Assembly: GCA_021824175.1 (NCBI GenBank)
Contig: JAKALP010000004.1
Span: 186,001-250,000, forward strand
DNA: 64,000 nt
DNA from: Deltaproteobacteria bacterium
GTDB lineage: Bacteria > Desulfobacterota > Desulfobacteria > Desulfobacterales > Desulfosarcinaceae
Direction of reading: 5' to 3'
Shown here: in pieces, positions 3,684-58,788 of the stretch
How the letters are laid out: each line of letters starts with the position of its first letter
Position numbering within the stretch: the first letter of the stretch is position 1
Program-made: the position numbers and the translations under genes
Notes under the pieces: generated by a model
What the model was told of the DNA's origin: nothing
The model's database searches: none
The model's input: the letters and a program-made list of their open reading frames with translations, nothing else

Positions 3684-3811
3684 AAGTTTAGGTAGAAAGT
3701 TTTAAGTTTAAAGTGTAAAGTTTAAAGTTAAGGTGCGTCCTCGACGCGGGCATTGATATTTTTCATGGTAGAATTCCTCAACTTTAAACTTTAAACTCCA
3801 AACTTAAAACT
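3684..3811. repeat. Inverted pair of TTTAAAG-type 7-base repeats
   Basis: The left arm (3684-3733) is a degenerate tandem of tttaagt/ttaaagt heptads. The right arm (about 3780-3811) is its reverse complement (actttaaactttaaact). About 45 bases separate them. It fills the gap between livF and the acyl-CoA ligase. Related copies lie at 34314-34438, 56221-56360 and 57573-57608. Confidence 0.8.
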
Positions 3812-3819
3812 ATCCCCTA

Positions 3820-4515
3820 TCATACTTCCAGCCACTCCTTGCGGATGGCCTGGTTATTTTTGATATCATCCGGCGTGCCTTCGAAAACGATACGCCCCTG
3901 GCCCATGATATAGAGCCGCTGGGAAATCTTCAGGGCGATGCTCAGCTTTTGTTCCACCAGCAGCACCGAAATGCCGCGGTTGGCAATTTCTTCGATCAGG
4001 CGGCCGATGTGTTCCACCATCATGGGCGCCAGGCCCTCGGTGGGCTCATCAATCATGATAAAGTCCGGGTCGCCCATCAACGTGCGGCAAATGGTGAGCA
4101 TTTGCTTCTCGCCGCCGGAGATCAGACCGCCGTGCACGTTGGAGCGCTCGCCCAGGCGCGGGAAGAGATTGAACACATCTTCGATGCGCCAGCGGCCCTG
4201 CCGTTTGGCGCTCTTCTGGCCCAGTTGAAGATTTTGCAGCACCGTGAGGCCTGGAAAGATCCAGCGGTCTTCGGGCACGAAGCCGATGCCTTTACGGGCG
4301 ATCTCATGAGGCTTCAGGCCGGCGATCTCTTGGCCCTGGTAGCGGATCGAACCGTGGGGCGGCACCAGACCCATGATGGTCATGCAGGTGGTGGAGCGGC
4401 CCACGCCGTTGCGGCCCAGCAGGCTGACGATTTCTCCTTTGCCTACTTGCAGGTTGACTCCTTGTAGAATATGGCTGCGCCCATAGTAGGCATGCAATTC
4501 TTTTACTTCCAGCAT
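3820..4515 (-). CDS. livF: Branched-chain amino acid-type ABC transporter ATPase (LivF-like)
   Basis: A 231-residue ABC ATPase. The Walker A motif reads GRNGVGRSTT at residues 35-43, so the invariant lysine is Arg40. The signature is ISGGEKQML, Walker B is FIMIDEPTEGL, and the H-loop position reads VEQKLSIAL. Its size and the LLVEQ ending fit LivF. The start codon abuts the livG stop, so the two are translationally coupled. It powers the LivHM permease with LivG. Similar Lys-to-Arg changes are, from memory, known in LivF-like proteins, so the protein is probably not dead. The substrate may be an organic acid rather than an amino acid, given the neighbouring acyl-CoA genes. Confidence 0.88.
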   Translation of the reverse strand: MLEVKELHAYYGRSHILQGVNLQVGKGEIVSLLGRNGVGRSTTCMTIMGLVPPHGSIRYQGQEIAGLKPHEIARKGIGFVPEDRWIFPGLTVLQNLQLGQKSAKRQGRWRIEDVFNLFPRLGERSNVHGGLISGGEKQMLTICRTLMGDPDFIMIDEPTEGLAPMMVEHIGRLIEEIANRGISVLLVEQKLSIALKISQRLYIMGQGRIVFEGTPDDIKNNQAIRKEWLEV

Positions 4516-5268
4516 TTAGGCGCTCTCCTTTCCCAGATAGGCCTCTTGAACCTGGGGGTTTTGACGGATCTTGTCCGGATGATCCGTGGCCACAATTTCG
4601 CCGTAGACCAGGACTGAAATGCGGTCGGCCAAGTTAAAGACCACCTGCATATCGTGTTCGACCACCAGCAGGGTTTTGCCGGTCGTGACATCGCGGATCA
4701 ATTCCACGGCCCGTTCGGTTTCGCTCAGACTCATGCCGGCCGTGGGTTCGTCCAAAAGTATAACTTCCGCGTTGCCGGCAATGGTGATGCCGATCTCCAG
4801 GGCGCGTTGGTCGGCATAGGCCAGCAGACCGGCCGGGATATGACGGCGGTCGGCCAGATTGATGCGTTCCAGGATCTCTTCGGCCTTGGCGTTAATTTTT
4901 TTTAGTCGATCGCACAGGTGCCAGAAGGAATAGCCATATCCCATGGGCCACAGCAGGGCGCAGCGCACGTTCTCGAACACGCTCATCTTAGGGAAGATAT
5001 TGGTCACTTGAAAACTGCGACTCAGCCCCAGTCGATTGATACGGTGGGGCGGCAGATTGCTGATCATATGGCCATTGAGCTCGATATAACCGGCGCTGAG
5101 GGGATAGAACCCGCTGATCAAATTAAACAAGGTGGATTTGCCGGCACCGTTGGGGCCGATGATGGCATGGCGTTCGCCTTTGGCCACTGCCAGGTTGACG
5201 CCGTTGATGATTTTGCTGCTGCCAAAGCTTTTGTGGACATCCGCCAGTTTGAGGGCTGTCGTGCTCAT
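4516..5268 (-). CDS. livG: Branched-chain amino acid-type ABC transporter ATPase (LivG-like)
   Basis: A 250-residue ABC ATPase with an intact Walker A, GPNGAGKSTL, at residues 38-47, Walker B VILLDEPTAGMS and H-loop VVEHDMQVV. The signature is degenerate: YADQRALEIG stands where LSYGQQRxLEI is usual, which is common in LivG-like subunits but weaker here. It pairs with LivF to energise the permease. The start overlaps the livM stop by four bases (ATGA), and its own stop touches livF, so the genes are one translation-coupled operon. Confidence 0.9.
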   Translation of the reverse strand: MSTTALKLADVHKSFGSSKIINGVNLAVAKGERHAIIGPNGAGKSTLFNLISGFYPLSAGYIELNGHMISNLPPHRINRLGLSRSFQVTNIFPKMSVFENVRCALLWPMGYGYSFWHLCDRLKKINAKAEEILERINLADRRHIPAGLLAYADQRALEIGITIAGNAEVILLDEPTAGMSLSETERAVELIRDVTTGKTLLVVEHDMQVVFNLADRISVLVYGEIVATDHPDKIRQNPQVQEAYLGKESA

Positions 5269-7509: not shown

Positions 7510-7585
7510 GGTTTGGATTTCCGTGGAATTGGATGAAGAATGGGTTTAAAATTTGTTTGGCATATTGAAAGCCTATAGTACCAGA

Positions 7586-7656
7586 GTATTCAGAATTCAG
7601 GAGTTAGAATTCAGAATTTTTTCATTCTGGCTCCTGAATTCTGACTCCTGAATACT
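7586..7656. repeat. Inverted pair of CAGAATT/CAGGAGT heptad repeats
   Basis: The left arm agtattcagaattcaggag with further cagaatt units is followed after a T-rich loop by the reverse complement (ctcctgaattctgactcctg, then aatact). The period is seven bases. It would form a long RNA hairpin between livK and livH. A short relative, cagtcagaattcagatc, occurs near 17241. Confidence 0.8.
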
Positions 7657-7741
7657 TGAAACCGACTTAGACTCTCACACCATCCAAGCGCACCCCGTCC
7701 ATAACCTCGGGGTGCCCTTGGTTCAAGGTTCAAGCAATGTT

Positions 7742-11597: not shown

Positions 11598-11685
11598 AAC
11601 GCAGAGTTCGCGGAGGTACGCAGAGAGTTTTGTCCATTATACTTCCTTTGCATTCCTCTGCGAGCTCTGCGCCACTGCGTTGAAG
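11598..11685. repeat. Inverted pair of CGCAGAG-type repeats
   Basis: The left arm (taacgcagagttcgcggagg, then tacgcagag) is answered by cctctgcgagctctgcgcc and actgcgttga about 30 bases later. It is an inverted pair of short degenerate repeats. A second copy of the same family is at 51231-51347. Confidence 0.75.
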
Positions 11686-13531: not shown

Positions 13532-13739
13532 CATAAGCGCTAACTTAAGTGAATATCGAATATCGAACAAGGAACAGCAAAATGTCGAAGCAACTTAGTG
13601 CCCTATCTTGATTTTTGTCGCAAGCATAAAAACGGCTAACCAGAACAATAAGAAAACTTTGTAATTCGATATTTGTTGTTCAATATTCGATATTCTTTTT
13701 TCAACAGAATTTAGTTGTCTATTTAAGTTAGCGCTTATG
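13532..13739. repeat. 208-bp element with 17-bp terminal inverted repeats and inner ATATCGAA repeats
   Basis: The ends are a perfect inverted pair: cataagcgctaacttaa (13532-13548) and ttaagttagcgcttatg (13723-13739). Inside lies a second inverted pair of gaatatc heptads: gaatatcgaatatcgaac on the left (from 13551), and gttcaatattcgatattc on the right (ending near 13694). There is no coding potential. It resembles a MITE-like or nested repeat insertion between the thiolase and flavoprotein genes. Confidence 0.75.
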
Positions 13740-17219: not shown

Positions 17220-17408
17220 TTTTCGGAAGAAGATAGTATTGAGCAGTCAGAATTCAGATCGGTCTGTAGCAAGAGCATCCCGCAGTCGAAGATTTCGGTG
17301 CACAAAGTGCACCTTGCAATATCCGGGGCATTTACTGGGGAACGAAACTGAAAAATTGTTCCTCACTGTACCAATCAACTAATCAACCAATCGACGACCC
17401 AACCAGCC
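17220..17408. repeat. Intergenic spacer with partial repeat arms
   Basis: This spacer between glpD and the kinase gene holds a short cagaattcag word near 17246, ggtgcacaaagtgcacc (about 17299-17316, a small palindrome) and a lone right arm of the ATCAACC family, ccaatcaactaatcaacc (17371-17388). Together they look like remnants of several repeat families. Confidence 0.55.
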
Positions 17409-23938: not shown

Positions 23939-24475
23939 ATGAAATATTGTTCTGAGTGCGGTGCCCCGGTTCAGCTGCGGGTGCCAACCGACGATGACCG
24001 GCCGCGATACATTTGCGATGGGTGCGGACGAATTCACTATGAGAATCCCAAAATGGTGGTGGGCTGCGTCCCGGAGTGGGAAGACCGCATATTGTTGTGC
24101 CGCCGTAATATAGAACCCCAAAAGGATCTATGGACGTTGCCAGCCGGCTATCTTGAAAACGGCGAGGGGGTAGCGGATGGGGCCCGGCGCGAGACCCTGG
24201 AAGAGAGCGGTGCGATCGTAGATCATCTTGAACCCTATCTACTCATTGATATTGTCCATATTCGCCAAATCTACTTGATGTTTCGGGGCAGAATGCAGAC
24301 CCCGGAATTCAAGGTCACACCGGAGAGCGCAGAAGTGGTCCTGATGCGTGAAGACCAGATCCCTTGGGATCAACTCGCGTTCCGGGCCATTGAAAAGACA
24401 TTGCGCTACTACTTCCGGGATCGCGCCGAAGGTCGCTTTCCATTCCGTGTTCGACCGGTTGGGAAGAGGGACTAA
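23939..24475 (+). CDS. NUDIX hydrolase with N-terminal zinc ribbon
   Basis: A 178-residue protein. The N-terminal zinc ribbon uses Cys4 and Cys7 (YCSECG) plus ICDGCG near residue 24. The Nudix box is complete: GYLENGE, seven residues, then RETLEESGA (GX5EX7REUXEEXGU), at about residues 66-88. Layout resembles NudC-like or ADP-ribose/NADH pyrophosphatases with a ribbon. It hydrolyses a nucleoside diphosphate linked to X, using Mg2+. The start follows a CTGGAG site. It is divergent from the retropepsin gene and followed by AGGGACTA repeats. Confidence 0.88.
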   Translation: MKYCSECGAPVQLRVPTDDDRPRYICDGCGRIHYENPKMVVGCVPEWEDRILLCRRNIEPQKDLWTLPAGYLENGEGVADGARRETLEESGAIVDHLEPYLLIDIVHIRQIYLMFRGRMQTPEFKVTPESAEVVLMREDQIPWDQLAFRAIEKTLRYYFRDRAEGRFPFRVRPVGKRD

Positions 24476-24500
24476 GGGACAAAGGGACTAAGGGACTGAG
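24465..24500. repeat. GGGACTAA-type tandem repeat (left arm)
   Basis: Degenerate 8-base units (agggacta/agggacaa) begin within the last codons of the Nudix gene and continue past its stop. The reverse complement (cccttagtccctttgtccct) is at 24723-24742, 220 bases further on, so the two form an inverted pair around the 24604-24690 element. Confidence 0.75.
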
Positions 24501-24690: not shown

Positions 24691-24720
24691 ATCTTTTAAA
24701 CGGTATATCGGATTTTTCTC

Positions 24721-24750
24721 CATCCCTTAGTCCCTTTGTCCCTTTATCTA
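24721..24750. repeat. GGGACTAA-type tandem repeat (right arm)
   Basis: The reverse complement of the arm at 24465-24500, immediately after the stop of the lipoprotein gene that ends at 24752 on the minus strand. Confidence 0.75.
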
Positions 24751-34057: not shown

Positions 34058-34313
34058 AGATTCCCCCTTTTGGTATGTTAAAGGTGCTCCCTCTTATTTC
34101 AGTTGATTTTAATGTACCCCGTAGGGGAGGGCCGGAGCAGCAATGTCTTCAGTGTTCGCTTTCATTTTCGCTCCCTTGTGCTGTGGCCGATGAATATGGA
34201 AGTCAGGTCGAGTTCCCTTTTATGTGAGCTATCTCCCGCTTCCGGCCTTCCTCCTACTTGGTGCTCGTCCCACTTGCCTTTGGACCCAAACGTTGTCTCC
34301 GCTGTGCGGAGGA

Positions 34314-34438
34314 GTTTTAAGTTTAAAGTATTAAAGATTAAAGTTAAGGTATTCTGCCTTCAACCTTTTATCTCTCCATCCAATCCGCCGGAACTCTACA
34401 ACTTAAAACTTTACTACTTTCAACTTTAAACTTTAAAT
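34314..34438. repeat. Inverted pair of TTTAAAG-type repeats between ftsA and ftsZ
   Basis: The left arm gttttaagtttaaag with further ttaaag units (34314-34349) faces acttaaaac...actttaaact (34400-34438). The right arm runs into ftsA: its TAA stop (34433-34435) lies in the repeat. The rest of the 34058-34313 gap holds no gene. Confidence 0.78.
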
Positions 34439-38056: not shown

Positions 38057-38264
38057 TTCCGTTGTCCGTTTGCCCGTTTGCCCGTTGCCCGTTGCCCGTG
38101 TGCCCGTTGCCCGTGTGCCCGTTAGCCCGTGTGCCCGTTTGCGCGTATTTCTTTTTTCGTTTTACTTCTCCGTTTGACTGCTTGATTCAGCGTTCAACCA
38201 ATGTGTTTTGATTCCCCGTTTTTCTCCTTAACGGGCGAACGGGCAACGGGCAAACGGGCGAACG
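38057..38264. repeat. Inverted pair of CCCGTTG/CCCGTGT repeats between murG and murC
   Basis: The left arm (38057-38143) is about a dozen 7-8-base units such as cccgttg, cccgtgtg and cccgttt. The right arm (38230-38264) reads acgggcgaacgggcaacggg, then caaacggg, its reverse complement. Spacer about 85 bases. The left arm begins within three bases of the murC start codon. Confidence 0.85.
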
Positions 38265-38265
38265 C

Positions 38266-42944: not shown

Positions 42945-42952
42945 GGGTTACT

Positions 42953-43090
42953 CGTTTATTGGTTTATTGGTTTATTGGTTGAGTGGATCATGGTTCAACC
43001 TGCGCTCCATACCGTCTTTGTCTCTTCCGAATGGGTCATTGGCATTGGGCCTCTCACCGAATGACCGAATCAACCAATCAACGATTAGAC
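42953..43090. repeat. Inverted pair of TTGATTGG/TTTATTGG repeats between murF and mraY
   Basis: The left arm (42953-42986) repeats gtttattg three times then gttgagtg. The right arm (43060-43090) reads gaatcaaccaatcaacgatt. It covers the murF stop: the final codons and TGA (43078-43080) are repeat sequence. Confidence 0.85.
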
Positions 43091-44496: not shown

Positions 44497-44497
44497 T

Positions 44498-44692
44498 TCG
44501 TTATTCGTTATTGGTTTATTGGTTATCGGTTGATCTGTTAATCGGTTAAATGGTTGTTGCTGTTTATTCGTTGTTTACTCCCCTCACCCCGGCGCTCTCC
44601 CCAGTGTATAGACCGGGGAGATAGGTAACAGACGTTCTAGGACATAGGTAATCCACTCAACGAATCAACCACTCAACGATTCAACGTTTCCA
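44498..44692. repeat. Inverted pair of TTATTGG/TTGATTCG repeats between murE and murF
   Basis: The left arm (44498-44580) contains ttcgttattcgttattggtt and related units. The right arm (44649-44692) reads ccactcaacgaatcaaccac, then tcaacgattcaacg. The right arm runs into murE and contains its TGA stop (44673-44675). Between the arms lies a GC-rich dispersed element (44580-44631). Confidence 0.85.
44580..44631. repeat. GC-rich dispersed element (copy 2)
   Basis: ccctcaccccggcgctctcc, then ccagtgtatagaccggggag and ataggta. It shares the tatagac-ggggag-taggta core with 24604-24690. It contains a small ctcccc/ggggag hairpin. Confidence 0.6.
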
Positions 44693-46217
44693 ACGCCTTC
44701 CCCGCTTCGATGCGGTCATCGAAGGGGAACTTCTCTTTGCCAATGATCTGGTACGGCTCATGACCTTTGCCGGCGATCAAAATGGTGTCACCAGGGCTGG
44801 CCGCCCGGATACCCAGGGCAATCGCTTTGCGCCGGTCCGCTTCCACCACATAGCCTTTGCCGGTGTAGTCATCGGGCAGCGCCGAAGGCATATAAAACCG
44901 CAGCCCCTGCTGGCGCACGCCTTCCACGATCTGGGTGATGATCTGTTCGGGGCGCTCGGTGCGCGGGTTGTCCGAGGTCACCACTACCAAGTCGCTGAAG
45001 CGCGCGGCAATGGCGCCCATGAGAGATCGTTTGGAGCGATCCCGGTCCCCGCCGCAGCCGAAGACGCAGATGATGCGCTGTTGGGTCAGGGTGCGCAGGG
45101 CGCTCAACACCTTTTCCAGTGCATCCGGCTTATGGGCATAATCCACGTAAACAAAGCGCCGGCCGCCAGGATCGACGACCCGCTCCAACCGGCCAGGTAC
45201 ATTGCCCAAGTGCTGGATGCCGGCCTGAATGGCCTGGGTCCCCAGATCCAGGGCCAGGGCCACGCCTACGGCATTGAGGATATTTTCCAAATTATGGTGG
45301 CCCACCAGGGCTGAATGGATTTTTAAATCGCCTTTGGGGGTACGAATCAGCGCCTCGATGCCTTCCAAACCGCATTGGGCCGAGAGCGCTTGGATATCTG
45401 CCGGGCCGGTCTGCCCAGTGGTCAAGCGCGGCAGATTGAGCTGCCCGGATAATTCCCGGCCCCGTTGATCATCGCTGTTGATCACGGCCCGCAGGGCGAC
45501 TTTGCCCACCGAAGCCGGCAGGTACCGCGTAAAAAGCGTGCGTTTGCTTTGCCAGTACTGCTCCATGTCGTGGTGGAAATCGAGATGGTCCTGGCTCAGG
45601 TTGGTGAAGACCGCCACATCCACATCGCAGGCATGCACACGGCTCAGATCCAAGGCGTGGGAAGAGATCTCCATGGCCACATGGGTGACGCCCGCGGCCT
45701 GCATCTGCGCCAGAATGCGCTGCAAATCGAGCGACTCCGGGGTGGTCACGGGGTTATCGAATACCTGGTCGTTGTAACGGTAGTTGACCGTGCCGATCAC
45801 CCCGACCTTCAGACCAGCGGCCCGCAGAATACTTTCAATCAGGTAGCAGGTGGTGGTTTTTCCGCTGGTGCCGGTGATGCCGACAATGGTCATGCGCCGG
45901 GAGGGATGACCGAAAAATTCAGCCCCCAATTGAGCCAGCGCCTTACGCGAGTCGCTGACCACAATTTCAGGAGCTTTGGCGCCAGTGGAATGCTCGCACA
46001 CTACGGCCGCGGCCCCGCGCTGGACCGCCTGGCCGATGAATTCATGGCCGTCGGCGGCAAACCCTTTAACGGCCACAAACAGACCGGCCGGTGTCACGGC
46101 CTGGGCGCGATAGAACACTTCGGTCACTTCCATTGCGCCGAGGGCCGCATCGCTGGTTCGACTTTTGCCGGCCGACCGCAAATTTTCAATGGCGTTAAGC
46201 AATTGCACCATTTTCAT
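44673..46217 (-). CDS. murE: UDP-N-acetylmuramoyl-L-alanyl-D-glutamate--2,6-diaminopimelate ligase
   Basis: A 514-residue Mur ligase. ATG 46217 overlaps the ftsI stop by four bases (ATGA). The ATP loop is VGITGTSGKTTTCYLIESI, and SHALDLSRVHACDVDVAVFTN and FGCGGDRDRSKR are family marks. DNPRTERP carries the DNPR motif that selects meso-diaminopimelate, so the cell wall is the usual Gram-negative type. It adds the third residue of the stem peptide. The C-terminus ends LETLNR, with the last codons and stop lying in a repeat arm. Confidence 0.97.
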   Translation of the reverse strand: MKMVQLLNAIENLRSAGKSRTSDAALGAMEVTEVFYRAQAVTPAGLFVAVKGFAADGHEFIGQAVQRGAAAVVCEHSTGAKAPEIVVSDSRKALAQLGAEFFGHPSRRMTIVGITGTSGKTTTCYLIESILRAAGLKVGVIGTVNYRYNDQVFDNPVTTPESLDLQRILAQMQAAGVTHVAMEISSHALDLSRVHACDVDVAVFTNLSQDHLDFHHDMEQYWQSKRTLFTRYLPASVGKVALRAVINSDDQRGRELSGQLNLPRLTTGQTGPADIQALSAQCGLEGIEALIRTPKGDLKIHSALVGHHNLENILNAVGVALALDLGTQAIQAGIQHLGNVPGRLERVVDPGGRRFVYVDYAHKPDALEKVLSALRTLTQQRIICVFGCGGDRDRSKRSLMGAIAARFSDLVVVTSDNPRTERPEQIITQIVEGVRQQGLRFYMPSALPDDYTGKGYVVEADRRKAIALGIRAASPGDTILIAGKGHEPYQIIGKEKFPFDDRIEAGKALETLNR

Positions 46218-51148: not shown

Positions 51149-51230
51149 GGTGGGGTTCTATCAAAGGGCGTGAGGGAGAATCAACGCTAAAACCGGAACT
51201 ATCTTTGTTCTGCGCAATGCTCATTTCAAC

Positions 51231-51347
51231 GCAGAGTTCGCGCTGAGAATCGCAGAGGCCTGCTGCGGCAACCGCTTCCTGAGAAATAAGCAAGGAAAAA
51301 TGAAACCTCTGCGGCCCATTGCGCCCCCCGCGAACCCTGCGTTGAAT
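51231..51347. repeat. Inverted pair of CGCAGAG-type repeats
   Basis: caacgcagagttcgcgctga (51231-51250), with agaatcgcagagg following, is answered by cctctgcggcccattgcgcc and cgcgaaccctgcgttga about 50 bases on. The same family as 11598-11685. Confidence 0.75.
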
Positions 51348-51373
51348 ATTTAGATTTCGTAGAAGCCCGCTTC

Positions 51374-51415
51374 GGGCTTACGGGCACACGGGCTAACGGG
51401 CCACGGGCTAACGGC
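51374..51415. repeat. CCCGTTG-family repeat, single arm
   Basis: Units such as acgggca, cacgggcta and acgggcca in tandem, directly before the icmF stop. It matches the right-arm orientation of 38230-38264; no full left arm was found nearby. Confidence 0.65.
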
Positions 51416-51416: not shown

Positions 51417-54400
51417 CTACATATTCCTCCGATACTTCCCCCCCACCTCATACAGCGCCTGGGTAATCTGCCCAAGGCTGCAATAGCGCACGCACTCCAT
51501 CAATGCCGTGAAGATATTGCCGCCGGCAAGAGCGGTTTGCCGCAATTGCTCCAAGGCCTGGGGCGCGCGTGCGGCGTGGCGCTGGTGGAAGGCGGCCAGA
51601 CGTGCCAGTTGGGACTCTTTCTCTTCAGGTGTGGAGCGGGCCAGGGTAATGGGGAGGGCTTCTCTCGTGGGGCCTTGGGCCGCATGGGGATTGCGAAAGA
51701 CATTGACGCCCACGATGGGCAGGTCGCCGGTATGCTTGAGGGTTTCGTAGTAAATGGACTCTTCCTGGATTTTACTTCTTTGGTACCCGGTCTCCATGGC
51801 GCCCAGCACGCCGCCGCGGCTGGTGATGCGGTCGAATTCGGCCAGCACGGCCTCTTCCACCAGGTCGGTGAGCTGCTCTACGATAAAGCTGCCCTGCAGC
51901 GGGTTTTCGTTCTTAGCCAGGCCCCACTCGCGGTTGATGATCAATTGAATGGCCAGGGCCCGGCGCACGGACTCTTCGGTGGGCGTTGTAATGGCTTCGT
52001 CATAGGCATTGGTGTGCAGGCTCTGGCAATTGTCGTAGATGGCGCACAAGGCTTGCAAGGTGGTGCGAGTGTCGTTGAATTGAATCTCCTGGCTGTGCAG
52101 GGAGCGGCCCGAAGTTTGGATATGGTATTTGAGCATCTGGGCGCGTGGTCCGGCGCCGTACAGATCGCGCAGGGCAATGGCCCAGATGCGCCGCGCCACC
52201 CGGCCGATGACCGTGTACTCCGGGTCCATGCCGTTGGAGAAGAAAAAGGAGAGATTGGGCGCAAAATCGTCCACGGCCATGCCTCTGGAAAGGTAGTACT
52301 CCAGGTAGGTAAAGCCATTGGCTAGAGTGAACGCCAGTTGGGAGATGGGATTGGCGCCCGCCTCGGCGATGTGGTAGCCCGAGACCGAAACGCTGTAGAA
52401 GTTGCGCACGTTGTTTTCCACGAAGTACTGCTGGATATCGCCCATCATCTTGAGAGCGAAATCGATGGAGAAGATGCAGGTGTTCTGGCCCTGGTCTTCT
52501 TTTAAAATATCGGCCTGCACCGTGCCGCGCACAGTGGCGAGCGTTTCCGCCTTTAAGGCTGCATACTCCTGGGCATCGGGCGCCCGGCCGCTCTCAGCGC
52601 TAAAACGCGCCACCTGCTGATCAATGGCGGCGTTGAAGAACATGGCCAGCATGATGGGGGCTGGTCCGTTGATGGTCATGGAAACCGACGTGTTCGGGCT
52701 GCACAGATCAAACCCGTCGTAGAGCGTCTTAACGTCGTCTAAGGAGCAGACACTCACCCCGGCATTGCCGATCTTGCCGTAGATGTCCGGCCGCCGCTCC
52801 GGATCGAACCCGTAGAGGGTCACCGAGTCAAAAGCCGTGGAGAGCCGCTTGGCATCGCTGTCGGCCGACAGCAGCTTGAAGCGCTGGTTGGTGCGGGCCG
52901 GGTCACCCTCGCCGGCGAACATGCGGGTGGGATCTTCGCCCGTGCGTTTGAGCGGAAAGACCCCGGCCGTGTAAGGGAAGAAGCCCGGCAGATGCTCGCG
53001 CCGCAGCCAGCGAAAGAGTGTCCCCGGCTCGTCAAAGCCGGGCAGGGCGATCTTGGGAATGGCGCTGCGAGCCAGGGATTCGCTGCGTAGCTCGGCGCGC
53101 ACCTCGCCATCGCGTACGGGGTAAACCAGCTCCGGCTGGGCGTAAGCCTGCCGAATCTTCTGCCATTCGGCCAGGAGCCGCTCATTGGCCGGATCAACCG
53201 CCTGGCGGGCCTGCTCCACGGCCTGATGCAGCTCGCCCAGCAATTGGTCACGGTTTCCGCTCGTCAAGTTTTGTTTCAACGTCGCGACCGCTTGCTCCAG
53301 ATGGGTCACGTTGCGCAGGGAAGCAGTTTGTTGTTCGGTGGTTTCGTGATAGCGGCGCACGCATTGGGCGATCTCAGCCAGGTAGCGGGTGCGCTCGGCC
53401 GGGATAATGATGGCCGGGCTGCTGGATACCCGGCCGGCCGGTTTGGCAAGTCCTGAGGCAAAGCTCACAGCGGTTTTGGCGGCAATGCGGTCCAGCAAGG
53501 CATGGTAGAGCGCCGTCACCCCGTCATCATTGAAACGGGCCGCGATGGTGCCGAAAACAGGCATCTCCTCAGGGGCGAGTTCAAACGCCTTGCGGTTGCG
53601 CTGCACCTGCTTGCGCACGTCGCGCAGGGCATCCTCACTACCCCGTTTCTCAAATTTGTTGATCACCACCAGATCGGCGAAATCCAGCATGTCGATTTTT
53701 TCCAGCTGGGAGGCGGCGCCGAAGTCGCTGGTCATGACATAAATGGAGAGATCGGCCAGATCCGTGATGCTGGAGTCGCCCTGGCCAATGCCCGCGGTTT
53801 CGAGGATCACCAGATCAAAGCCCGCGGCCTTGGCGGCCAGCACGATGTCTGGCATGGCTTCGGGTATCTCATTGCGCGATTGCCGGGTGGCCAGAGAGCG
53901 CATATAGACCCGCTCGCTGTCGATGGCATTCATGCGGATGCGGTCGCCCAGAAGCGCTCCGCCGCTTTTGCGGCGCGAGGGGTCGGCACTGAAAACCGCC
54001 ACGCGGATTTGTTTCAGGTCGAGCAACAGGCGCTGGACCAGCTCATCGGTCAGCGACGATTTGCCCGAGCCGCCGGTGCCGGTGATGCCCACCACGGGCA
54101 CCGGCCGTTGGTTGGCCAAGGATTGCAGTTGAGCTCTCAAAGGAGAAATGGCTGTGGTGAGGGCGTAATGTTCGATGGCCGTAATCCAATTGGCCAATAG
54201 AAGAGGGTTGTTGGGAGACAGCCCCTGCAAGCTGATCTGGTCCGAAGCAGGGATTCTGGAAAAATCGAGCTGCTCCACCATGTGGTTGACAATGCCCTGC
54301 AAACCCATCCGGGTCCCGTCCTCGGGCGTATAGATCTTGGCCACGCCATAGGCTTCCAGTTCCCGAACCTCGGTGGGCACAATGACGCCACCACCACCCC

Positions 54401-54698
54401 CAAACACCTTTATGTGGGGCGCGCTGGCCTTTCGTAAGAGATCGACCAGATATTTGAAAAATTCCAGATGGCCGCCCTGGTAGGAGGAGACCGCCACCCC
54501 CTGGACATCCTCCTGGACGGCCGCCTGGACAATCTCCTGCACGGAGCGGTTGTGGCCCAGATGGATCACCTCCACCCCATTGGCCTGCAGCATGCGGCGG
54601 TAAATGTTGATGGCCGCATCATGGCCATCGAACAGGGAGGTGGCCGTGACCACCCGGACGGCGTTTTTGGGGGTATAAACGACGTTTTGAATCGACAT
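51417..54698 (-). CDS. icmF: Fused isobutyryl-CoA mutase (B12 domain + G-protein chaperone + mutase)
   Basis: 1093 residues, the usual IcmF length. The N-terminal B12-binding domain has DGHDAAINIYRRM with His26 as the lower cobalt ligand. A MeaB-type GTPase follows, Walker A GTGGSGKSS at about residues 207-215. The C-terminal mutase barrel has TRMFAGEGDPARTNQRFKLL and PNTSVSMTINGPAP. It interconverts isobutyryl- and n-butyryl-CoA, and relatives can act on isovaleryl/pivalyl-CoA; the GTPase loads B12. It sits divergent to acyl-CoA dehydrogenase and hydratase genes, so it may feed branched acyl-CoAs to beta-oxidation. A methylmalonyl-CoA mutase role is less likely given the fusion. Confidence 0.93.
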   Translation of the reverse strand: MSIQNVVYTPKNAVRVVTATSLFDGHDAAINIYRRMLQANGVEVIHLGHNRSVQEIVQAAVQEDVQGVAVSSYQGGHLEFFKYLVDLLRKASAPHIKVFGGGGGVIVPTEVRELEAYGVAKIYTPEDGTRMGLQGIVNHMVEQLDFSRIPASDQISLQGLSPNNPLLLANWITAIEHYALTTAISPLRAQLQSLANQRPVPVVGITGTGGSGKSSLTDELVQRLLLDLKQIRVAVFSADPSRRKSGGALLGDRIRMNAIDSERVYMRSLATRQSRNEIPEAMPDIVLAAKAAGFDLVILETAGIGQGDSSITDLADLSIYVMTSDFGAASQLEKIDMLDFADLVVINKFEKRGSEDALRDVRKQVQRNRKAFELAPEEMPVFGTIAARFNDDGVTALYHALLDRIAAKTAVSFASGLAKPAGRVSSSPAIIIPAERTRYLAEIAQCVRRYHETTEQQTASLRNVTHLEQAVATLKQNLTSGNRDQLLGELHQAVEQARQAVDPANERLLAEWQKIRQAYAQPELVYPVRDGEVRAELRSESLARSAIPKIALPGFDEPGTLFRWLRREHLPGFFPYTAGVFPLKRTGEDPTRMFAGEGDPARTNQRFKLLSADSDAKRLSTAFDSVTLYGFDPERRPDIYGKIGNAGVSVCSLDDVKTLYDGFDLCSPNTSVSMTINGPAPIMLAMFFNAAIDQQVARFSAESGRAPDAQEYAALKAETLATVRGTVQADILKEDQGQNTCIFSIDFALKMMGDIQQYFVENNVRNFYSVSVSGYHIAEAGANPISQLAFTLANGFTYLEYYLSRGMAVDDFAPNLSFFFSNGMDPEYTVIGRVARRIWAIALRDLYGAGPRAQMLKYHIQTSGRSLHSQEIQFNDTRTTLQALCAIYDNCQSLHTNAYDEAITTPTEESVRRALAIQLIINREWGLAKNENPLQGSFIVEQLTDLVEEAVLAEFDRITSRGGVLGAMETGYQRSKIQEESIYYETLKHTGDLPIVGVNVFRNPHAAQGPTREALPITLARSTPEEKESQLARLAAFHQRHAARAPQALEQLRQTALAGGNIFTALMECVRYCSLGQITQALYEVGGKYRRNM

Positions 54699-54825
54699 GC
54701 GGATTCCACTCCTGGGTTATGGTTGCGGCCGCCGGCAGCTTCCAAATCAAATATCGCCCGGCGCGGGAGGAAATCTGAGTGCTCTATTCATCATTTCCGT
54801 TTTTGGGGTCGGCGTCAACTGGACC

Positions 54826-54984
54826 GTTGATTCGTTGATTGGTTGATTCGTTGATTGGTCGATTTGTTTCCAAGATCCGCGTAGCAATGGCGCGATAAAG
54901 TTATGCATTCCTTTGCAGGCGTGAGAACGAGGGAAATGATGAAAAAACGAATCAACCAATCAACGAATCAACGAATCAACGAAC
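54826..54984. repeat. Inverted pair of TTGATTGG/TTGATTCG repeats
   Basis: The left arm ttgattcgttgattggttga, then ttcgttgattgg (54828-54858), faces aatcaaccaatcaacgaatc, then aacgaatcaacga (54950-54982), with about 90 bases between. It fills the gap between divergent icmF and the acyl-CoA dehydrogenase gene, where their promoters must lie. Confidence 0.88.
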
Positions 54985-55069
54985 ACCCAGCTTGACACCC
55001 CAACAAAGCCGATGGGATACTCAATTTCGAATTGACCTTTCCTCTCAAACCCCCAATGGAGGAGATTCA

Positions 55070-56215
55070 GTGGACTTTGACTTAACCCGCGAGCAGGAGA
55101 TGATCCGCAGGGAGGTGCGCTCTTTTGCCGAAAAAGAGATTGCGCCCCTGGCAGTGGAACTGGATGAACGCGAGCATTTCTCCGCCGAGCTCACCCGCAA
55201 AATGGGCGAAATCGGACTTTTTGGCATGTTCGTTTCCGAACCCTATGAGGGCCAGGCCCTGGATTATCTCTCCTATATTATCGCCGTGGAGGAGATCGCC
55301 CGCGTGGACGGCTCCCAGGCCGCCACCATTGCGGCCGGCAACTCCTTAGGAATAGGACCGCTTTACTACTTCGGCACCGAGGAGCAGAAGAAAAGATTAC
55401 TGCCGCCCCTGTGCCGGGGCGAAGCCTTGTGGGGTTTTGGCCTGACCGAACCCACGGCCGGCTCGGATGCCGGTGGCAGCAAGACCACGGCGGTCAAGGA
55501 CGGCGGCCACTGGGTGCTCAACGGATCGAAGATCTTCATCACCAATGCGGCTTGTGATCTGACCCTGGGCGTTACCGTACAGGCCGTCACCGGCCAGCGC
55601 GGCGGCAAACCCGAGTACACCTGCTTTCTGGTAGAAGCCGGCATGCCCGGATTCAAGGCCGTGGCCATGAAGGGCAAGATGATGTGGCGCGCCTCCAATA
55701 CCGCCGAACTCTACTTCGACGACGTGCGCGTGCCCGAGAAGAATATCCTGGGCCAGCCCGGCGATGGCTTTCATCAGATGCTGCAGACTCTGGATGGCGG
55801 CCGTCTCTCCATCGGCGCCATGGGCTTGGGGGGTGCCGTGGGCGCTTATGAGGCAGCCTTGCGTTATGCCAAAACCCGTGTCCAGTTTGACCAGCCCATC
55901 TCCAAGTTCCAGGCTGTGGCCTTCAAACTGGCCGATTGCGCTACCGAAATCGAATGCGGCCGCAATTTGCTCTACAAAGCCTGCTGGCTGCGGGACCACC
56001 ATCGCCCCTTTGCCAAGGAAGCGGCCATGGCCAAGCTGTACTGCTCCGAACTGATGGGCCGCGTGGCCGACCACGCCGTGCAAATCCACGGCGGCTACGG
56101 CCTCATGAAGGATTACCACGTGGAGCGATTCTACCGCGATCATAAACTGCTGGAGATCGGCGAGGGGACATCGGAAGTACAGCGGATTGTGATTTCGAGG
56201 CATATTGGCTGTTAG
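55070..56215 (+). CDS. Acyl-CoA dehydrogenase
   Basis: 381 residues starting at GTG 55070, which has GGAGGA six bases upstream and gives the standard ACAD N-terminus (DFDLTREQEMIRREVRSFAE). FAD and substrate motifs are GFGLTEPTAGSDAGG, WVLNGSKIFITNA and MKDYHVERFYRDHKLLEIGEGTSEVQR (shown in part). The Glu in 'YGLMKDYHVERFYRD..EIGEGTSE' fits the short-chain type. It oxidises acyl-CoA to the 2-enoyl form and passes electrons to ETF. First gene of a plus-strand run facing icmF. Confidence 0.92.
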   Translation: MDFDLTREQEMIRREVRSFAEKEIAPLAVELDEREHFSAELTRKMGEIGLFGMFVSEPYEGQALDYLSYIIAVEEIARVDGSQAATIAAGNSLGIGPLYYFGTEEQKKRLLPPLCRGEALWGFGLTEPTAGSDAGGSKTTAVKDGGHWVLNGSKIFITNAACDLTLGVTVQAVTGQRGGKPEYTCFLVEAGMPGFKAVAMKGKMMWRASNTAELYFDDVRVPEKNILGQPGDGFHQMLQTLDGGRLSIGAMGLGGAVGAYEAALRYAKTRVQFDQPISKFQAVAFKLADCATEIECGRNLLYKACWLRDHHRPFAKEAAMAKLYCSELMGRVADHAVQIHGGYGLMKDYHVERFYRDHKLLEIGEGTSEVQRIVISRHIGC

Positions 56216-56220
56216 AGGAA

Positions 56221-56360
56221 AAGTTTTAAGTTTTAAGTTTAAAGTTTTAAGTTGAGGAATGCTGTCGATTAGATATTGCTTTACATAAATGTTCTGCTTG
56301 ATATCCAATAAGATGCAACACCTTAACTTAAAACTTAAAACATTGAACTTTAAACTTAAA
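56221..56360. repeat. Inverted pair of TTTAAAG-type repeats
   Basis: aagttttaagttttaagttt (from 56221) with more units to 56256 faces ccttaacttaaaacttaaaa (56321-56340) and the following ttgaactttaaacttaaagg. The last aaagga of the right arm is the ribosome site of the enoyl-CoA hydratase gene. Confidence 0.85.
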
Positions 56361-56370
56361 GGATCACCCT

Positions 56371-57153
56371 ATGGAAGAACAACTGATCATCAGTGAAGTA
56401 AAAGACAACATCGCCACCCTGACCCTCAACCGCCCTGAGGTGATGAATTCGTTCAATGTGGCCATGGTCAATGCTTTGGGCGAACGCATGGCGGCCCTGC
56501 GCTTTGATCCAGCCGCGCGGGTGGTGATCATCACTGGCGCCGGTGACAAAGCCTTCAGCGCCGGGGCTGATCTCAAGGAGCGCGCCGGCATGAGCCCAGA
56601 GCAGGTCAAAGCCTTTATCTTCAACATCCGGCGTTTGATGGACGAAGTGGAACAGTTCCCCAAGCCGGTAATTGCCGCCGTCAACGGTGTGGCCCTGGGC
56701 GGGGGCACCGAGCTGGCCCTGGCCGCCGATATCCGCCTGGCATCGGAAACCGCCACCATGGGGCTGACCGAAACGCGGCTGGCCATCATTCCCGGCGCCG
56801 GCGGCACCCAGCGGTTACCGCGCCTGGTGGGCAGGGGCATTGCCAAGGAGCTGATCTTCACCGGCCGACGCATCGATGCCCGCGAAGCATTGCGAATCGG
56901 TCTGGTCAATCATGTATATCCAGCCCAGGAGCTGATGCCGCGGTGCCGGGCCCTGGCCGAAGAGATCTGCCAGTCCGGCCCCATTGCCGTGGAGCAGGCC
57001 AAGTACGCCATCAACCGCGGCCTGGAGACCGATCTGGCCACCGGCCTGGCCATCGAGTCCAATGCGTATTGGCTGTGCATTCCCACCGAGGATCGCCTGG
57101 AGGGATTGGCGGCGTTTCGAGAGAAGCGCAAGCCGGTGTATAAGGGGAAGTAA
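56371..57153 (+). CDS. Enoyl-CoA hydratase (crotonase)
   Basis: A 260-residue crotonase. Both hydratase glutamates are present: GGGTE in VALGGGTELALAADIRLA and the Glu of TMGLTETRLAIIPGAGGTQRL (shown in part). The oxyanion loop AFSAGADLKERA is standard. It adds water to 2-enoyl-CoA. AAAGGA, part of a repeat arm, is its ribosome site seven bases upstream. It follows the dehydrogenase, giving two successive beta-oxidation steps. The stop runs into GAAGGTA repeats. Confidence 0.93.
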   Translation: MEEQLIISEVKDNIATLTLNRPEVMNSFNVAMVNALGERMAALRFDPAARVVIITGAGDKAFSAGADLKERAGMSPEQVKAFIFNIRRLMDEVEQFPKPVIAAVNGVALGGGTELALAADIRLASETATMGLTETRLAIIPGAGGTQRLPRLVGRGIAKELIFTGRRIDAREALRIGLVNHVYPAQELMPRCRALAEEICQSGPIAVEQAKYAINRGLETDLATGLAIESNAYWLCIPTEDRLEGLAAFREKRKPVYKGK

Positions 57154-57243
57154 GGGGAAGGTAGAAGGTAGAAGGCTGAAGGCCGAAGACTGAAGGCAGA
57201 AGTTGGAAGCGTTGATTGGTTGATTCGTTGATTGGTTGATTGG
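57154..57243. repeat. GAAGGTA heptads followed by TTGATTGG octamers
   Basis: gtagaaggtagaaggctgaa continues as about seven gaaggcN heptads to 57208, and then switches without a gap to gttgattggttgattcgttg and related octamers (57210-57243). Two families stand head to tail, each without its partner arm nearby. A short GAAGGTA copy occurs at 58764-58788. Confidence 0.8.
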
Positions 57244-57261: not shown

Positions 57262-57549
57262 GTAGGTCGCGTTAACGGTCCACCAACGCGACAGAATAGA
57301 TCGAAGCGGTATGGATAAAATAGAAAAGCGTGTTGGTCATGGAATATTGGGTGCCATTTTGGGCGCGGGCACGACTTGCACTGCACAGGCCATATTAGGA
57401 CAAATTTCTATTCCGCCGATAATAATTGTTGCTGTACTGTGTTTTGTCGCCGCATTCTTTGGTGGAATTAAAGTTATTGATTATCTTTTGAAGCTAGATG
57501 ACTACATTTAGGAAGAACATCGCGTTGATAGAATATCAACGCGACCTAC
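57262..57549. repeat. Inverted pair of GTAGGTCGCGTT hairpins around a small gene
   Basis: gtaggtcgcgttaac (57262-57276) is mirrored by atcaacgcgacctac (57535-57549). Each arm is also a hairpin: gtcgcgtt/aacgcgac on the left and cgcgttgat/atcaacgcg (57521-57543) on the right. They bracket the 66-residue gene at 57311-57511. Confidence 0.75.
57311..57511 (+). CDS. Small hydrophobic membrane protein (66 aa), unknown function
   Basis: A 66-residue protein with two hydrophobic stretches, HGILGAILGAGTTCTAQAIL and PPIIIVAVLCFVAAFF, and charged ends (MDKIEKR, LLKLDDYI). It resembles small two-helix inner-membrane proteins; no family was recognised. The ribosome site is weak. It lies between inverted hairpin repeats and among several repeat families, so it may be a transferred or mobile cassette, or a chance frame. 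The regular hydrophobic pattern argues for real coding. Confidence 0.45.
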   Translation: MDKIEKRVGHGILGAILGAGTTCTAQAILGQISIPPIIIVAVLCFVAAFFGGIKVIDYLLKLDDYI

Positions 57550-57572: not shown

Positions 57573-57608
57573 CCTTAACTTTAAACTTAAGACTTTAAAC
57601 TTAAAATT
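57573..57608. repeat. TTTAAAG-family repeat, right arm only
   Basis: ccttaactttaaacttaaga followed by ctttaaacttaaaattt. Orientation matches the right arms at 3780-3811 and 56321-56360; no left arm was found within about 350 bases. Confidence 0.75.
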
Positions 57609-57639
57609 TTTATTTAACGAACCAACGAAAGGCCCCCCA

Positions 57640-58764
57640 ATGACCGAATACGATTACTGGAAGATCTTCCCGCGCATGCCGCGCAAGGTGACCATCGGCG
57701 ACATCACCATCCGTGACGGGTTCCAGCATCTGGAGAAGTTCATCTCCACCCGGGCTAAGATCTTCTACCTGGAAGAGTTGATCTTCGCCGGCTGCCACAA
57801 CATTGAAGTGACCAATCTGGGCAACCCTTTCCTCATGCCCCAATTCGAGGATGCCGAAACCCTCTTTAAGCACCTGCGCAGCGACCGCTTCAGGGAGCGC
57901 TGCGCCCGCAAAGGCATCAAGTATGATGAACTGGTGCTCACGGCCATCACCATCCGCGAACCGGCCGTGGACCGCGCCATCCAGCTAAAAGCCCAGGGCA
58001 TCGGCCCGGACCGGGTCCTGATGATGGTCTCCACCGAAGAAGAACATCACTTCGCCAACTCCGGCTGCACCCTGCCCGAGTATTGGGCCGAGGCCGAACG
58101 CTGCATCAAAAAGTGCAAGGATGCCGGCATCCAGATGTGCGGCACGGTCTCCACCATCTGGGGCAGCCCCATCGGCGGGGCGACCAAGCTGGAAGATGCG
58201 GTGGAATTCACCAAACACTTCCTGGCCATCGGCGCCGATGATATCGAGCACGCCGACCACGACGGCAGCGCCTCGGCGCCCGAAGTCTACCGGTACTTTT
58301 CCATGATCCTGGACGCCATCCCCGATGCCCGCCTGCACATCGCCCATTTCCACGAAACCAAGCGCGTGGCTTCGGCTTCGATTTTGGCTGCCCTGCAGGC
58401 CGGCATCTGCCACTTCGAAGCCACCCTGGGCGGCCTGGGCGGCCAGCCGGCCAATTTCCTGGATGACTGCCCGGTGCCCGGCACCGGCGAGTACTACTAT
58501 GACGATCCCCGCTATGTGGGCTTGGTGTGCCTGGAAGATTTGCTGGTGCAGGTCGACGAAATGGGCATCACACACGGTTATGACGTAGATCGCATTCTCT
58601 GGTTGGGGCGCCAGCTGGAGAAAACCGTGGGGCACCGCCTGCGCTCCGAAGCTGTGATCAACGGTCGCACCCTCAAAGCGGGCCATCCCCGCTATGCACG
58701 GCCGGGGCTCAAGGAACGCAAGGCCAAACGCAAGGAGCAGCCGGGGCAGAAGTTTCCGGAGTAG
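57640..58764 (+). CDS. HMG-CoA lyase-like / pyruvate carboxyltransferase-domain enzyme (DRE-TIM family)
   Basis: A 374-residue DRE-TIM metallolyase barrel. The N-terminal GDITIRDGFQHLEKF (RDGFQ in place of LRDGLQ) supplies the metal and catalytic Arg-Asp; EVTNLGNPF, TIWGSPIGG and HFHETKRVASAS (HxH metal site) follow, then ATLGGLGGQP. It may cleave a 3-hydroxy-3-methylacyl-CoA, or condense an acyl-CoA. AAAGG lies seven bases upstream of ATG 57640. Placement after acyl-CoA dehydrogenase and hydratase, facing icmF, suggests branched-chain acyl-CoA breakdown. Confidence 0.82.
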   Translation: MTEYDYWKIFPRMPRKVTIGDITIRDGFQHLEKFISTRAKIFYLEELIFAGCHNIEVTNLGNPFLMPQFEDAETLFKHLRSDRFRERCARKGIKYDELVLTAITIREPAVDRAIQLKAQGIGPDRVLMMVSTEEEHHFANSGCTLPEYWAEAERCIKKCKDAGIQMCGTVSTIWGSPIGGATKLEDAVEFTKHFLAIGADDIEHADHDGSASAPEVYRYFSMILDAIPDARLHIAHFHETKRVASASILAALQAGICHFEATLGGLGGQPANFLDDCPVPGTGEYYYDDPRYVGLVCLEDLLVQVDEMGITHGYDVDRILWLGRQLEKTVGHRLRSEAVINGRTLKAGHPRYARPGLKERKAKRKEQPGQKFPE

Positions 58765-58788
58765 ACTGAAGGTGGAAGGTAGAAGGAG
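58764..58788. repeat. Short GAAGGTA repeat overlapping a ribosome site
   Basis: actgaaggtggaaggtagaa followed by ggag just before the cupin regulator gene. Units match the 57159-57208 family. The last unit, aaggag, is the ribosome site of the next gene. Confidence 0.65.

What the first reader, a model, noticed from the sequence alone, without database searches (positions are those of the whole stretch)
3684..58788. Many intergenic spacers are built from locus-specific 7-8-base repeats, mostly as inverted pairs
Seen directly: at least nine repeat 'words' (tttaaag, ttgattgg, cccgttg, gaaggta, gggactaa, caggagt/cagaatt, gaatatc, cgcagag, taggtcgcg) occur as degenerate tandems, usually as word ... 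reverse-complement around a 30-220-base spacer. For a given family the word arm is always on the left and the complement on the right, so either strand's RNA begins with the same word and folds into a long hairpin. Different loci use different words but share period and layout. That the two arms within a locus still match although the units are degenerate suggests copying between arms (inference). Heptamer repeats are known in cyanobacteria (STRR), but I know of no described multi-word inverted system like this.
Basis: partly seen in the sequence, partly recalled or inferred. Interest (0 to 1): 0.75.

Follow-up and report, generated by a model that had tools for sequence, protein, structure and literature searches.

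The report
Foldback-like repeat-word hairpins between genes
Many gaps between genes in this bacterium hold mirror-image stretches built from a small set of 6-9-letter DNA words that often begin right where genes stop; they look like old, spreading hairpin elements, and one of the words occurs in the same layout in bacteria of other phyla.

Summary
In 1.024 Mb of the 6.07-Mb genome, 74 of 623 intergenic regions carry word clusters; one shuffle of the intergenic DNA had no period-7/8 arrays, coding DNA 2 clusters. In all 33 regions holding both orientations the word comes first and its complement last; in 31 of 33 the outermost arms share a word family (chance 7). Arms hug genes, stop codons above all, and are rare in divergent gaps. 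Families look instead like dispersed foldback/MITE-like units: D has a shared core in 16 copies, absent from 39 relatives, often between matching CTNAG pentamers; A arms have a fixed size and border. Orthologous gaps are shorter in 48 of 52 cases. TTGATTSG in inverted, stop-abutting layout occurs in genomes titled Chloroflexi, Bacteroidetes and Thermoanaerobaculia kinds. Inverted heptamer pairs at ORF ends were described for one word in Xanthomonas (Rehm 2015), so this is a multi-word, cross-phylum variant. Origin of the words and function remain unproven.

The parts
3684..3734 (+). family A (TTTAAAG) left arm, upstream of a minus-strand gene start
   Evidence: TRF period 7 and 21; sequence; inner border TTAAGG
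3780..3811 (-). family A right arm, 8 nt outside the stop of the minus-strand gene 3820-4515
7588..7618 (+). family F (CAGGAGT/CAGAATT) left arm
   Evidence: TRF; fold of 7585-7660 z -6.2
7624..7653 (-). family F right arm
   Evidence: TRF
11598..11627 (+). family H (CGCAGAG) left arm
   Evidence: word positions; sequence; fold z -5.6
11656..11681 (-). family H right arm
13551..13576 (+). family G (GAATATC) left arm; lies inside a further inverted flank (AAGCGCTAACTTAA / TTAAGTTAGCGCTT)
   Evidence: fold of 13545-13694 z -3.7
13664..13704 (-). family G right arm
17370..17407 (-). family B right-type arm without a clear partner, directly before the gene starting at 17409
   Evidence: TRF 17370-17392; sequence
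24467..24500 (+). family D (GGGACTAA) left arm, overlapping the stop end of 23939-24475
   Evidence: TRF
24723..24748 (-). family D right arm, 3 nt outside the stop of 24752-25153
   Evidence: TRF
34313..34345 (+). family A left arm
   Evidence: TRF
34392..34437 (-). family A right arm, reaching the stop of the gene 34433-35662; sister G008 has a decayed ACTTT-type stretch here
38059..38146 (+). family C (CCCGTTG/CCCGTGTG) left arm; G001 and G009 keep 31-44 nt of CCCGTT-like sequence in this gap
   Evidence: TRF
38230..38264 (-). family C right arm, directly outside the stop of 38266-39387
   Evidence: TRF; fold of 38120-38265 z -3.9
42945..42986 (+). family B (TTTATTGG) left arm
   Evidence: TRF; fold of 42945-43077 not better than shuffles (z -0.5)
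43060..43085 (-). family B right arm, overlapping the stop end of 43078-44496
   Evidence: sequence
44497..44555 (+). family B (TTATTGG) left arm
   Evidence: TRF
44653..44695 (-). family B right arm, overlapping the stop end of 44673-46217
   Evidence: TRF
51228..51260 (+). family H left arm
   Evidence: word positions 51230 and 51251; sequence
51307..51343 (-). family H right arm
51373..51414 (-). family C right-type arm without partner, 2 nt outside the stop of 51417-54698 (icmF)
54825..54868 (+). family B (TTGATTSG) left arm in a divergent gap
54933..54983 (-). family B right arm
   Evidence: fold of 54840-54988 z -5.8
56221..56253 (+). family A left arm, 5 nt after the stop of 55070-56215
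   Evidence: fold of 56216-56365 z -6.4
56325..56360 (-). family A right arm, 10 nt before the gene at 56371
57141..57202 (+). family E (GAAGGTA) arm, its repeat beginning inside the last codons of 56371-57153
57210..57243 (+). family B arm following the E arm
57263..57549 (.). single inverted pair TAGGTCGCGTT ... AACGCGACCTA (not an array)
   Evidence: sequence
57577..57610 (-). family A right-type arm before the gene at 57640
58768..58786 (+). family E arm, 3 nt after the stop of 57640-58764
   Evidence: TRF

Best explanation
The inverted word pairs are the arms of several families of dispersed, non-coding foldback-like (MITE/REP-like) elements. Each family has its own 6-9-base word; a unit is word array - spacer or core - complementary array. 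Units settled in ordinary short gaps between genes; because the arms are the ends of the unit and the gaps are short, the arms end up against the flanking genes, and the word reads away from each gene on both sides. They are tolerated after stop codons (words such as TTGATT, CCCGTTAG or TTTAAAG can themselves supply the stop) and outside the Shine-Dalgarno region, and are removed from promoter-bearing divergent gaps. After arrival each arm drifts by slippage and substitution, so arms keep the word but not the unit order. SHOWN: layout, orientation, placement, family-level arm identity, dispersal of one family (D) with a shared core, absence of that core from 39 relatives. INFERRED: that all families disperse as units (B and C have no known core), that a transposase acts in trans, slippage as the source of units, and selective removal from divergent gaps. 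The origin of the shared vocabulary is not explained.
For: Dispersal: a 120-bp core between D arms has 16 matches in this genome (E<=1e-4, the query's own place included) and none in 39 relatives, 10 of them same-genus. 7 of 16 copies have both outer ends, 5 one, 4 none; in 6 of the 7 the same pentamer stands on both sides (CTTAG five times, CTGAG in L171), in L174 TTTAG and CTTAG. Fixed borders: 13 of 17 A arms are exactly 28 nt (four heptads) and 11 of 17 are followed directly by TTRAGG; many H and F arms share their outer start. Unit gain: gaps of 213, 249 and 320 bp here are 13, 0 and 11 bp in G006; 48 of 52 orthologous gaps are shorter; the 211-bp murC-murG gap is 2-70 bp in 12 of 13 relatives. 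The gap left outside the element (median 52, 21 co-directional pairs) is like sister gaps (median 77, n=319, p=0.15); the whole gap is not (p=2e-6). Placement: co-directional 63 of 413 gaps, convergent 8 of 98, divergent 3 of 112; 19 of 21 co-directional pairs nearer the stop. Independent drift.
Against: For B (8 of 26 pairs) and C (4 of 26) no shared core and no target duplication were found. Since CTTAG is nearly constant, the D pentamer may be a fixed end sequence rather than a duplication. Many arms lack a clear partner: 54 solo family-locus cases against 26 pairs at the 20-nt threshold; only 13 of 48 tested have a significantly complementary partner. Sisters keep decayed sequence of the same family at some loci (own family scored highest in G009 at 3 of 7 and in G006 at 2 of 6 loci, at some only weakly), which suggests growth in place from an old arm. 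4 of 52 orthologous gaps are longer than here. No transposase family tested tracks the arrays: Y1_Tnp 7 here but 6 and 5 in G004 and G003, which have no B array; RVT_1 one partial match; none of seven Y1 regions bears the D ends. Abutting stop codons so often is tighter than random insertion suggests.
Confidence: 0.5

Rival explanations
1. The arrays grow in place: slippage of DNA synthesis expands a short word next to a gene end, and template switching at the fork writes the complement across the gap, giving inverted arms without any mobile unit. Growth stops at coding sequence, which is why arms touch stop codons.
For: Decayed sequence of the same word family at the same locus in some sisters; in other phyla the stop codon lies inside the array in 22 of 56 stop-facing ends and 0-10 nt before it in 21 (ends beyond 45 nt not counted); the L196 arms hold long nearly identical stretches; slight own-arm excess in other phyla.
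Against: A word shared across phyla is not expected from local growth; arms in this genome do not match within loci; the D core is dispersed with its arms; A arms have fixed length and border.
Confidence: 0.27
2. The hairpins are selected RNA elements: transcribed between genes they form long stems that protect the upstream mRNA 3' end, mark a processing site (RNase III) or insulate neighbours, as proposed for REP/BIME elements.
For: Stable predicted folds in six of seven stretches; placement after stops and rarity in divergent gaps; most Xanthomonas repeats are transcribed (Rehm 2015).
Against: Arms of a locus do not match better than chance within the family; arms are mostly absent at the same cell-wall/division operon in sister species; no Rfam match in the window; no stable fold at 42945-43077. 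Placement is also what neutral tolerance would give.
Confidence: 0.15
3. The arrays are plain simple-sequence repeats (LSSR/STRR) and the inverted layout is incidental.
For: Periods 7-8 and restriction to intergenic DNA match long simple sequence repeats (background).
Against: 33 of 33 order and 31 of 33 family match of the outermost arms.
Confidence: 0.02

Closest known systems
Inverted GGGAATC heptamer arrays of Xanthomonas (and GGGGA(C/T)T arrays of Nostoc), Rehm et al. 2015, PMC4692102
   Same: Heptamer arrays, intergenic; two arrays in convergent orientation on opposite strands (70 and 75 cases); most within 50 bp of the stop on the sense strand or upstream of the start on the antisense strand; rare between divergent ORFs; mostly transcribed; no function found (section 13 and passages read).
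   Different: One word studied per genome and few inverted pairs in Nostoc; here about eight words plus hexamer and nonamer forms in one genome, arms matched by family, one family with a dispersed core, and a word shared across phyla. Rehm et al. found repeat loci more stable than controls between Xcc and Xac and generally not linked to mobile elements; here sampled relatives mostly lack them.
TAACTGA repeats of Beggiatoaceae, Cyanobacteria and Bacteroidetes, MacGregor 2015, PMC4679880
   Same: Intergenic heptamer arrays near gene ends, patchy across phyla, mixed with other heptamers in some genomes (abstract, introduction and sections 8 and 10 read).
   [quoted passage not shown] one word studied; mostly just upstream of start codons there.
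BrickBuilt MITE of Porphyromonas gingivalis, Klein et al. 2015, PMC4596501
   Same: Bacterial MITE that contains a tandem repeat, always intergenic (abstract and outline seen).
   Different: A 23-nt minisatellite between small inverted ends; one element type, not inverted word arrays.
Drosophila Foldback and Galileo elements
   Same: Long terminal inverted repeats that are internally repetitive (Galileo: search listing of PMC3573991 only; Foldback anatomy recalled).
   Different: Eukaryotic and, as recalled, kilobase-sized; arms here are mostly 20-120 nt and no transposase is identified.
REP/BIME/REPIN with RAYT transposases
   Same: Dispersed extragenic palindromes, often after genes (recalled; only listings of PMC3116915 and PMC2817692 seen).
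   Different: REPs are single short palindromes (20-40 bp in the listing of PMC3733652); six of the seven Y1 regions here hold no array and the counts do not track the arrays.

Membership tests
Inverted heptamer arrays (Rehm type) | tandem 7-nt (here 7-8-nt) units, intergenic | tested here: met
Inverted heptamer arrays (Rehm type) | convergent pairs, word reading away from the gene, rare between divergent genes | tested here: met
   99 of 109 clusters nearer the expected gene end; 3 of 112 divergent gaps; 33 of 33 order. The 10 exceptions are H 5, F 2, B, C and D 1 each.
Inverted heptamer arrays (Rehm type) | G-rich, quadruplex-forming unit | tested here: not met
   Words such as TTTAAAG, TTGATTGG and CAGAATT have no run of three G (sequence); family D words do. 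Outward strand is G>C in 99 of 127 arrays; family C is the exception with 11 of 16 C>G.
MITE | dispersed non-coding unit with inverted ends | tested here: met
   For D only: core in 16 copies with D arrays around it. For B and C no common core appeared among the spacers compared within 1.02 Mb.
MITE | target-site duplication | tested here: inconclusive
   D: same pentamer on both sides in 6 of 7 copies with both ends, but it is CTTAG in five of these; no near-identical empty site was available. None seen for A by eye.
MITE | parent transposase with the same ends | tested here: not met
   D ends absent from the seven Y1 transposase regions; other transposase families were not tested.
REP/BIME | association with RAYT (Y1) transposase | tested here: not met
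   Counts do not track arrays among 11 genomes of the genus, though 7 here is the highest; arrays in 1 of 7 Y1 regions.
STRR/LSSR simple repeats | head-to-tail short units without partner | tested here: not met
   Paired, family-matched arms; but 54 solo cases exist.
Known RNA family | Rfam match | tested here: not met
   No match at gathering score in the window.

The most novel reading that the evidence does not exclude
A horizontally spread machinery (for example a template-directed or terminal polymerase) writes a limited vocabulary of 6-9-base words onto exposed ends next to gene 3' ends, producing word...complement pairs with the same words, orientation and stop-codon abutment in unrelated phyla; genomes like this one are in an active phase while their sister species are not.
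Probability: 0.07. Interest if true: 0.92.

Novelty: new variant of a known kind. Interest (0 to 1): 0.6.

Why it matters
Short-word repeats in bacterial intergenic DNA are usually treated as isolated microsatellites. Here several word families in one genome obey one layout rule, and one word occurs with the same layout in other phyla while most sampled close relatives lack it. That makes them a patchy class of foldback-like elements that fills space between genes, touches stop codons, changes gap lengths in a cell-wall/division operon and can be followed by strain sequencing. It turns the question of why heptamer repeats are common in bacteria into one about element dispersal, and gives concrete loci for testing whether intergenic hairpins matter for mRNA ends.

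Tried and rejected
Copying between arms: rejected for this genome at unit level, slight signal elsewhere. Cyanobacterial origin: no HIP1 site in the window. RAYT or reverse transcriptase as the generator: counts do not separate this genome from its sisters and no D ends lie at the Y1 regions; a role is not excluded. One general composition rule (outward strand G-rich): 99 of 127 arrays here and 18 of 20 pairs without TTGATT elsewhere (some of these, as in L072, are variants of that word), but it fails for family C. Word co-occurrence in the phylum as proof of a common generator: B in 1, D in 12 and C in 0 of 296 other genomes, the one B genome without D, so too sparse; the reversed-pattern control was 0 except for C in the own genome (28 against 103), where the reversed word resembles the array in another register. 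Stop codons in the word as the cause of orientation: the main F, G and H words carry none outward, so not general (sequence reasoning). Known RNA: none in the window. Literature: six exact word motifs occur in 0 papers; topic searches gave Rehm 2015 and MacGregor 2015 as nearest. The fold of 24601-24750 (z -0.05) omitted the left arm and is no test.

Limits: genes were called by a home-made script; word lists A-H were written after looking at the data; the shuffle control is a single shuffle; the named loci of other phyla were selected for the word-left layout, so they test placement, not orientation, and their genes are longest ORFs of at least 90 codons; may leave out records close to the window's genome. 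Orthologue scoring left out families E and F and gaps under 25 nt.

Changed on checking (odds): confidence in the best explanation 0.52 to 0.50 and in growth-in-place 0.25 to 0.27, because the pentamer at the D ends is nearly constant and the sister scores had been stated too loosely.
Full report
WHAT IS THERE. Tandem Repeats Finder and direct reading confirm short-word arrays between genes, mostly as inverted pairs. An 864-kb sample (plus window) was given genes by a simple hexamer-score caller. Period-8 and period-7 self-matches in intergenic DNA number 60 and 18, with 0 in one shuffle of the intergenic DNA and 0 in coding DNA; periods 14, 15, 16, 23 and 24 are likewise raised (13, 16, 41, 8, 25) with 0, 2, 1, 0, 4 in coding DNA; periods 6, 9, 12, 18 also occur in both. 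At a looser threshold 76 of 536 intergenic stretches carry 109 arrays.

VOCABULARY. In a 1.024-Mb sample (plus window) 109 word clusters fall in 74 of 623 intergenic regions and 2 in coding DNA: B (TTGATTSG) 29, D (GGGACAAA/GGCACAAA) 25, A (TTTAAAG) 17, H (CGCAGAG) 16, C (CCCGTTKG) 14, F (CAGGAGT/CAGAATT) 5, E (GAAGGTA) 3. Some H clusters lie inside D arrays, because the lists share similar words. G (GAATATC) reached the cluster threshold nowhere but gave 2 lag-detected arrays. Besides these there are inverted hexamer arrays (TACGAG, 29 of 34 lag-6 arrays) and nonamer arrays (CACGGATTA, 13 regions with two or more copies).

LAYOUT. Regions with both orientations of words: 33. The first word cluster lies left of the last complement cluster in 33 of 33, every word left of every complement in 32; the exception, C29:65545-65955, holds two H hairpins in a row. 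Outermost arms are of the same family in 31 of 33; shuffling gives 7.0 on average and at most 16. 99 of 109 clusters lie nearer the gene end from which the word reads away; median distance 10.5 nt to a stop (n=66) and 45 nt to a start (n=43); co-directional gaps 63 of 413, convergent 8 of 98, divergent 3 of 112. 28 of 66 stop-facing arms begin within 8 nt of the stop. Several arms supply the stop codon themselves, and on the start side many arms end 10-20 nt before the start codon, outside the Shine-Dalgarno stretch where one is visible (by eye).

ARMS DO NOT COPY EACH OTHER HERE. For 25 of 26 paired loci (the single F pair was dropped) own arms score 0.571 and arms shuffled within family 0.592, p=0.92. 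Arms keep the family but not the unit order. This speaks against recent copying and gives no support to selection for base pairing at individual loci.

UNITS. Spacers of several D loci share about 110 bp. This core has 16 matches in the genome, 72-100% identical, and none in 39 relatives. Around it lie D arrays and, in 7 of 16 copies on both sides and 5 on one, outer ends; the flanking pentamer is the same on both sides in 6 of 7 (CTTAG five times, CTGAG in L171), which can be read as a CTNAG target duplication or as a fixed end sequence; in L174 the left one is TTTAG. In L171 the ends are swapped relative to the core. Of 17 A arms 13 are exactly 28 nt and 11 are followed directly by TTRAGG; many H and F arms share their outer start. 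B, C and E arrays vary in length and lack such borders, apart from a GGGGAAGGC inner end shared by two B arms. Other spacers carry nested palindromes, GGATTCCCGC...GCGGGAATGACG and GGTGCATTCCATGCACC types.

RELATIVES. The cell-wall/division cluster of the window is syntenic in 14 fetched relatives, one of them (G004) only partly covered. The murC-murG gap is 211 bp here and 2-70 bp in 12 of 13 relatives, 201 bp without obvious words in G015. Over 13 of 74 array loci that found orthologues, 48 of 52 gaps are shorter than here, for example 13, 0 and 11 bp in G006 against 213, 249 and 320; 4 are longer (G009 149 against 111 and against 95, G015 365 and G011 247 against 133) and some are nearly equal (G009 132 against 136, 380 against 434). 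Sampled sisters hold 2, 0 and 1 word clusters in 240, 300 and 100 kb, and 11, 2 and 1 arrays of any word. Yet sisters keep decayed words of the same family at some loci: own family scored highest in G009 at 3 of 7 loci (z 2.4, 1.7, 5.0) and in G006 at 2 of 6 (1.5, 3.2); at the murC-murG gap of G009 family C scored 4.7 but D 7.0. So some arms probably predate the split.

BEYOND THE GENUS. A triple TTGATTSG array has 190 matches here and occurs in 3 of 39 relatives (G005 13, G015 1, G031 1) and in 1 of 296 other genomes drawn from the phylum; the D array in 12 of 296; the C array in none. The paired pattern TTGATTSG...complement was found in 54 stretches of named genomes, titled Anaerolineae/Anaerolineales, Caldilineaceae, Chloroflexi, Thermoflexus, Litorilinea; Bacteroidetes, Saprospiraceae, Chitinophagaceae, Flavobacterium, Mucilaginibacter, Phaeodactylibacter; and Thermoanaerobaculia (assignment to Chloroflexota, Bacteroidota and Acidobacteriota is recalled). 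There, element ends sit at a median of +2 nt from a stop (n=67) and 35 nt from a longest-ORF start (n=33); contexts are convergent 18, co-directional 24, divergent 4, incomplete 8. Among 56 ends within 45 nt of a stop, the stop codon lies inside the array in 22, often as the TGA of TTGATT, and 0-10 nt before it in 21. The same loci hold 20 further inverted array pairs without TTGATT. In genomes of other families of the phylum, G220 and G078 share nearly the same D arm with an outer CTGAATAGTTAC or CTGAGTAGTTAC, G147 a longer version of it, and G071 has a giant mirrored hairpin of several words with long nearly identical arm stretches.

FUNCTION. Six of seven window stretches with both arms fold far better than shuffles, one does not. 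No Rfam family matches in the window. I found no evidence of selection on pairing; the placement is compatible with neutral tolerance or with a REP-like role.

PRIOR ART. Rehm et al. 2015 described the inverted, ORF-hugging layout for GGGAATC in Xanthomonas and reported few inverted pairs in Nostoc; most repeats were transcribed and no function was found. MacGregor 2015 described TAACTGA direct repeats, patchy across phyla. Six exact word motifs occur in no paper of the library. As far as the listings show, the multi-word, family-matched system and its spread over phyla with one layout is not described there.

VERDICT. Real, genome-wide, and an extension of a known kind. The best reading is a set of foldback-like dispersed elements, shown well for D and partly for A, inferred for the others. 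The origin of the shared vocabulary is open.

Noticed in passing
C10:4618-4690, C29:81219-81299 and further intergenic regions of the own genome, 23 in all: Hexamer element TCGTACTCGTACTCGTACGCG...TTCGAGTACGAGTACG; both arms detected in 6 of the 23 regions, mostly about 20 nt apart; also in divergent gaps, unlike most 7-8-base words.
   Followed up: partly
C41:77910, C47:40359, C29:75003 and others: Nonamer arrays ATCCGTGTA...CACGGATTA in 13 regions; in all 8 with both sides ATCCGTG is left and CACGGAT right.
   Followed up: no
window 24610-24670, 44575-44625; C29:135894, C29:141549, C47:177958: Other palindromic repeats nested in the spacers: CCCCTCACCCC...GGGGAGATAGG and GGATTCCCGC...GCGGGAATGACG (resembles Neisseria dRS3, recalled).
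   Followed up: partly
L171 (G000:C22:209898-210013): D-element copy whose outer ends are swapped relative to its core, as if the core had inverted between the arms.
   Followed up: no
L196 (G071:C38:4600-5652): Giant mirrored hairpin made of at least four different words in mirrored order, with long nearly identical arm stretches.
   Followed up: partly
L202, L205, L207 (G220, G147, G078): Very similar D-type arm with outer CTGAATAGTTAC or CTGAGTAGTTAC in genomes of two families: a candidate element shared between families.
   Followed up: no
window 57141-57160 and C29:117693 (numbering of the 1.02-Mb sample): Two genes end with the same AAGGGGAAGTA(A/G) running into a GAAGGTA array, as if the element replaced the last codons.
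   Followed up: no
window 61675-61722: Tandem TGTGGCATGCCACA-type repeat, period 16 with indels.
   Followed up: no
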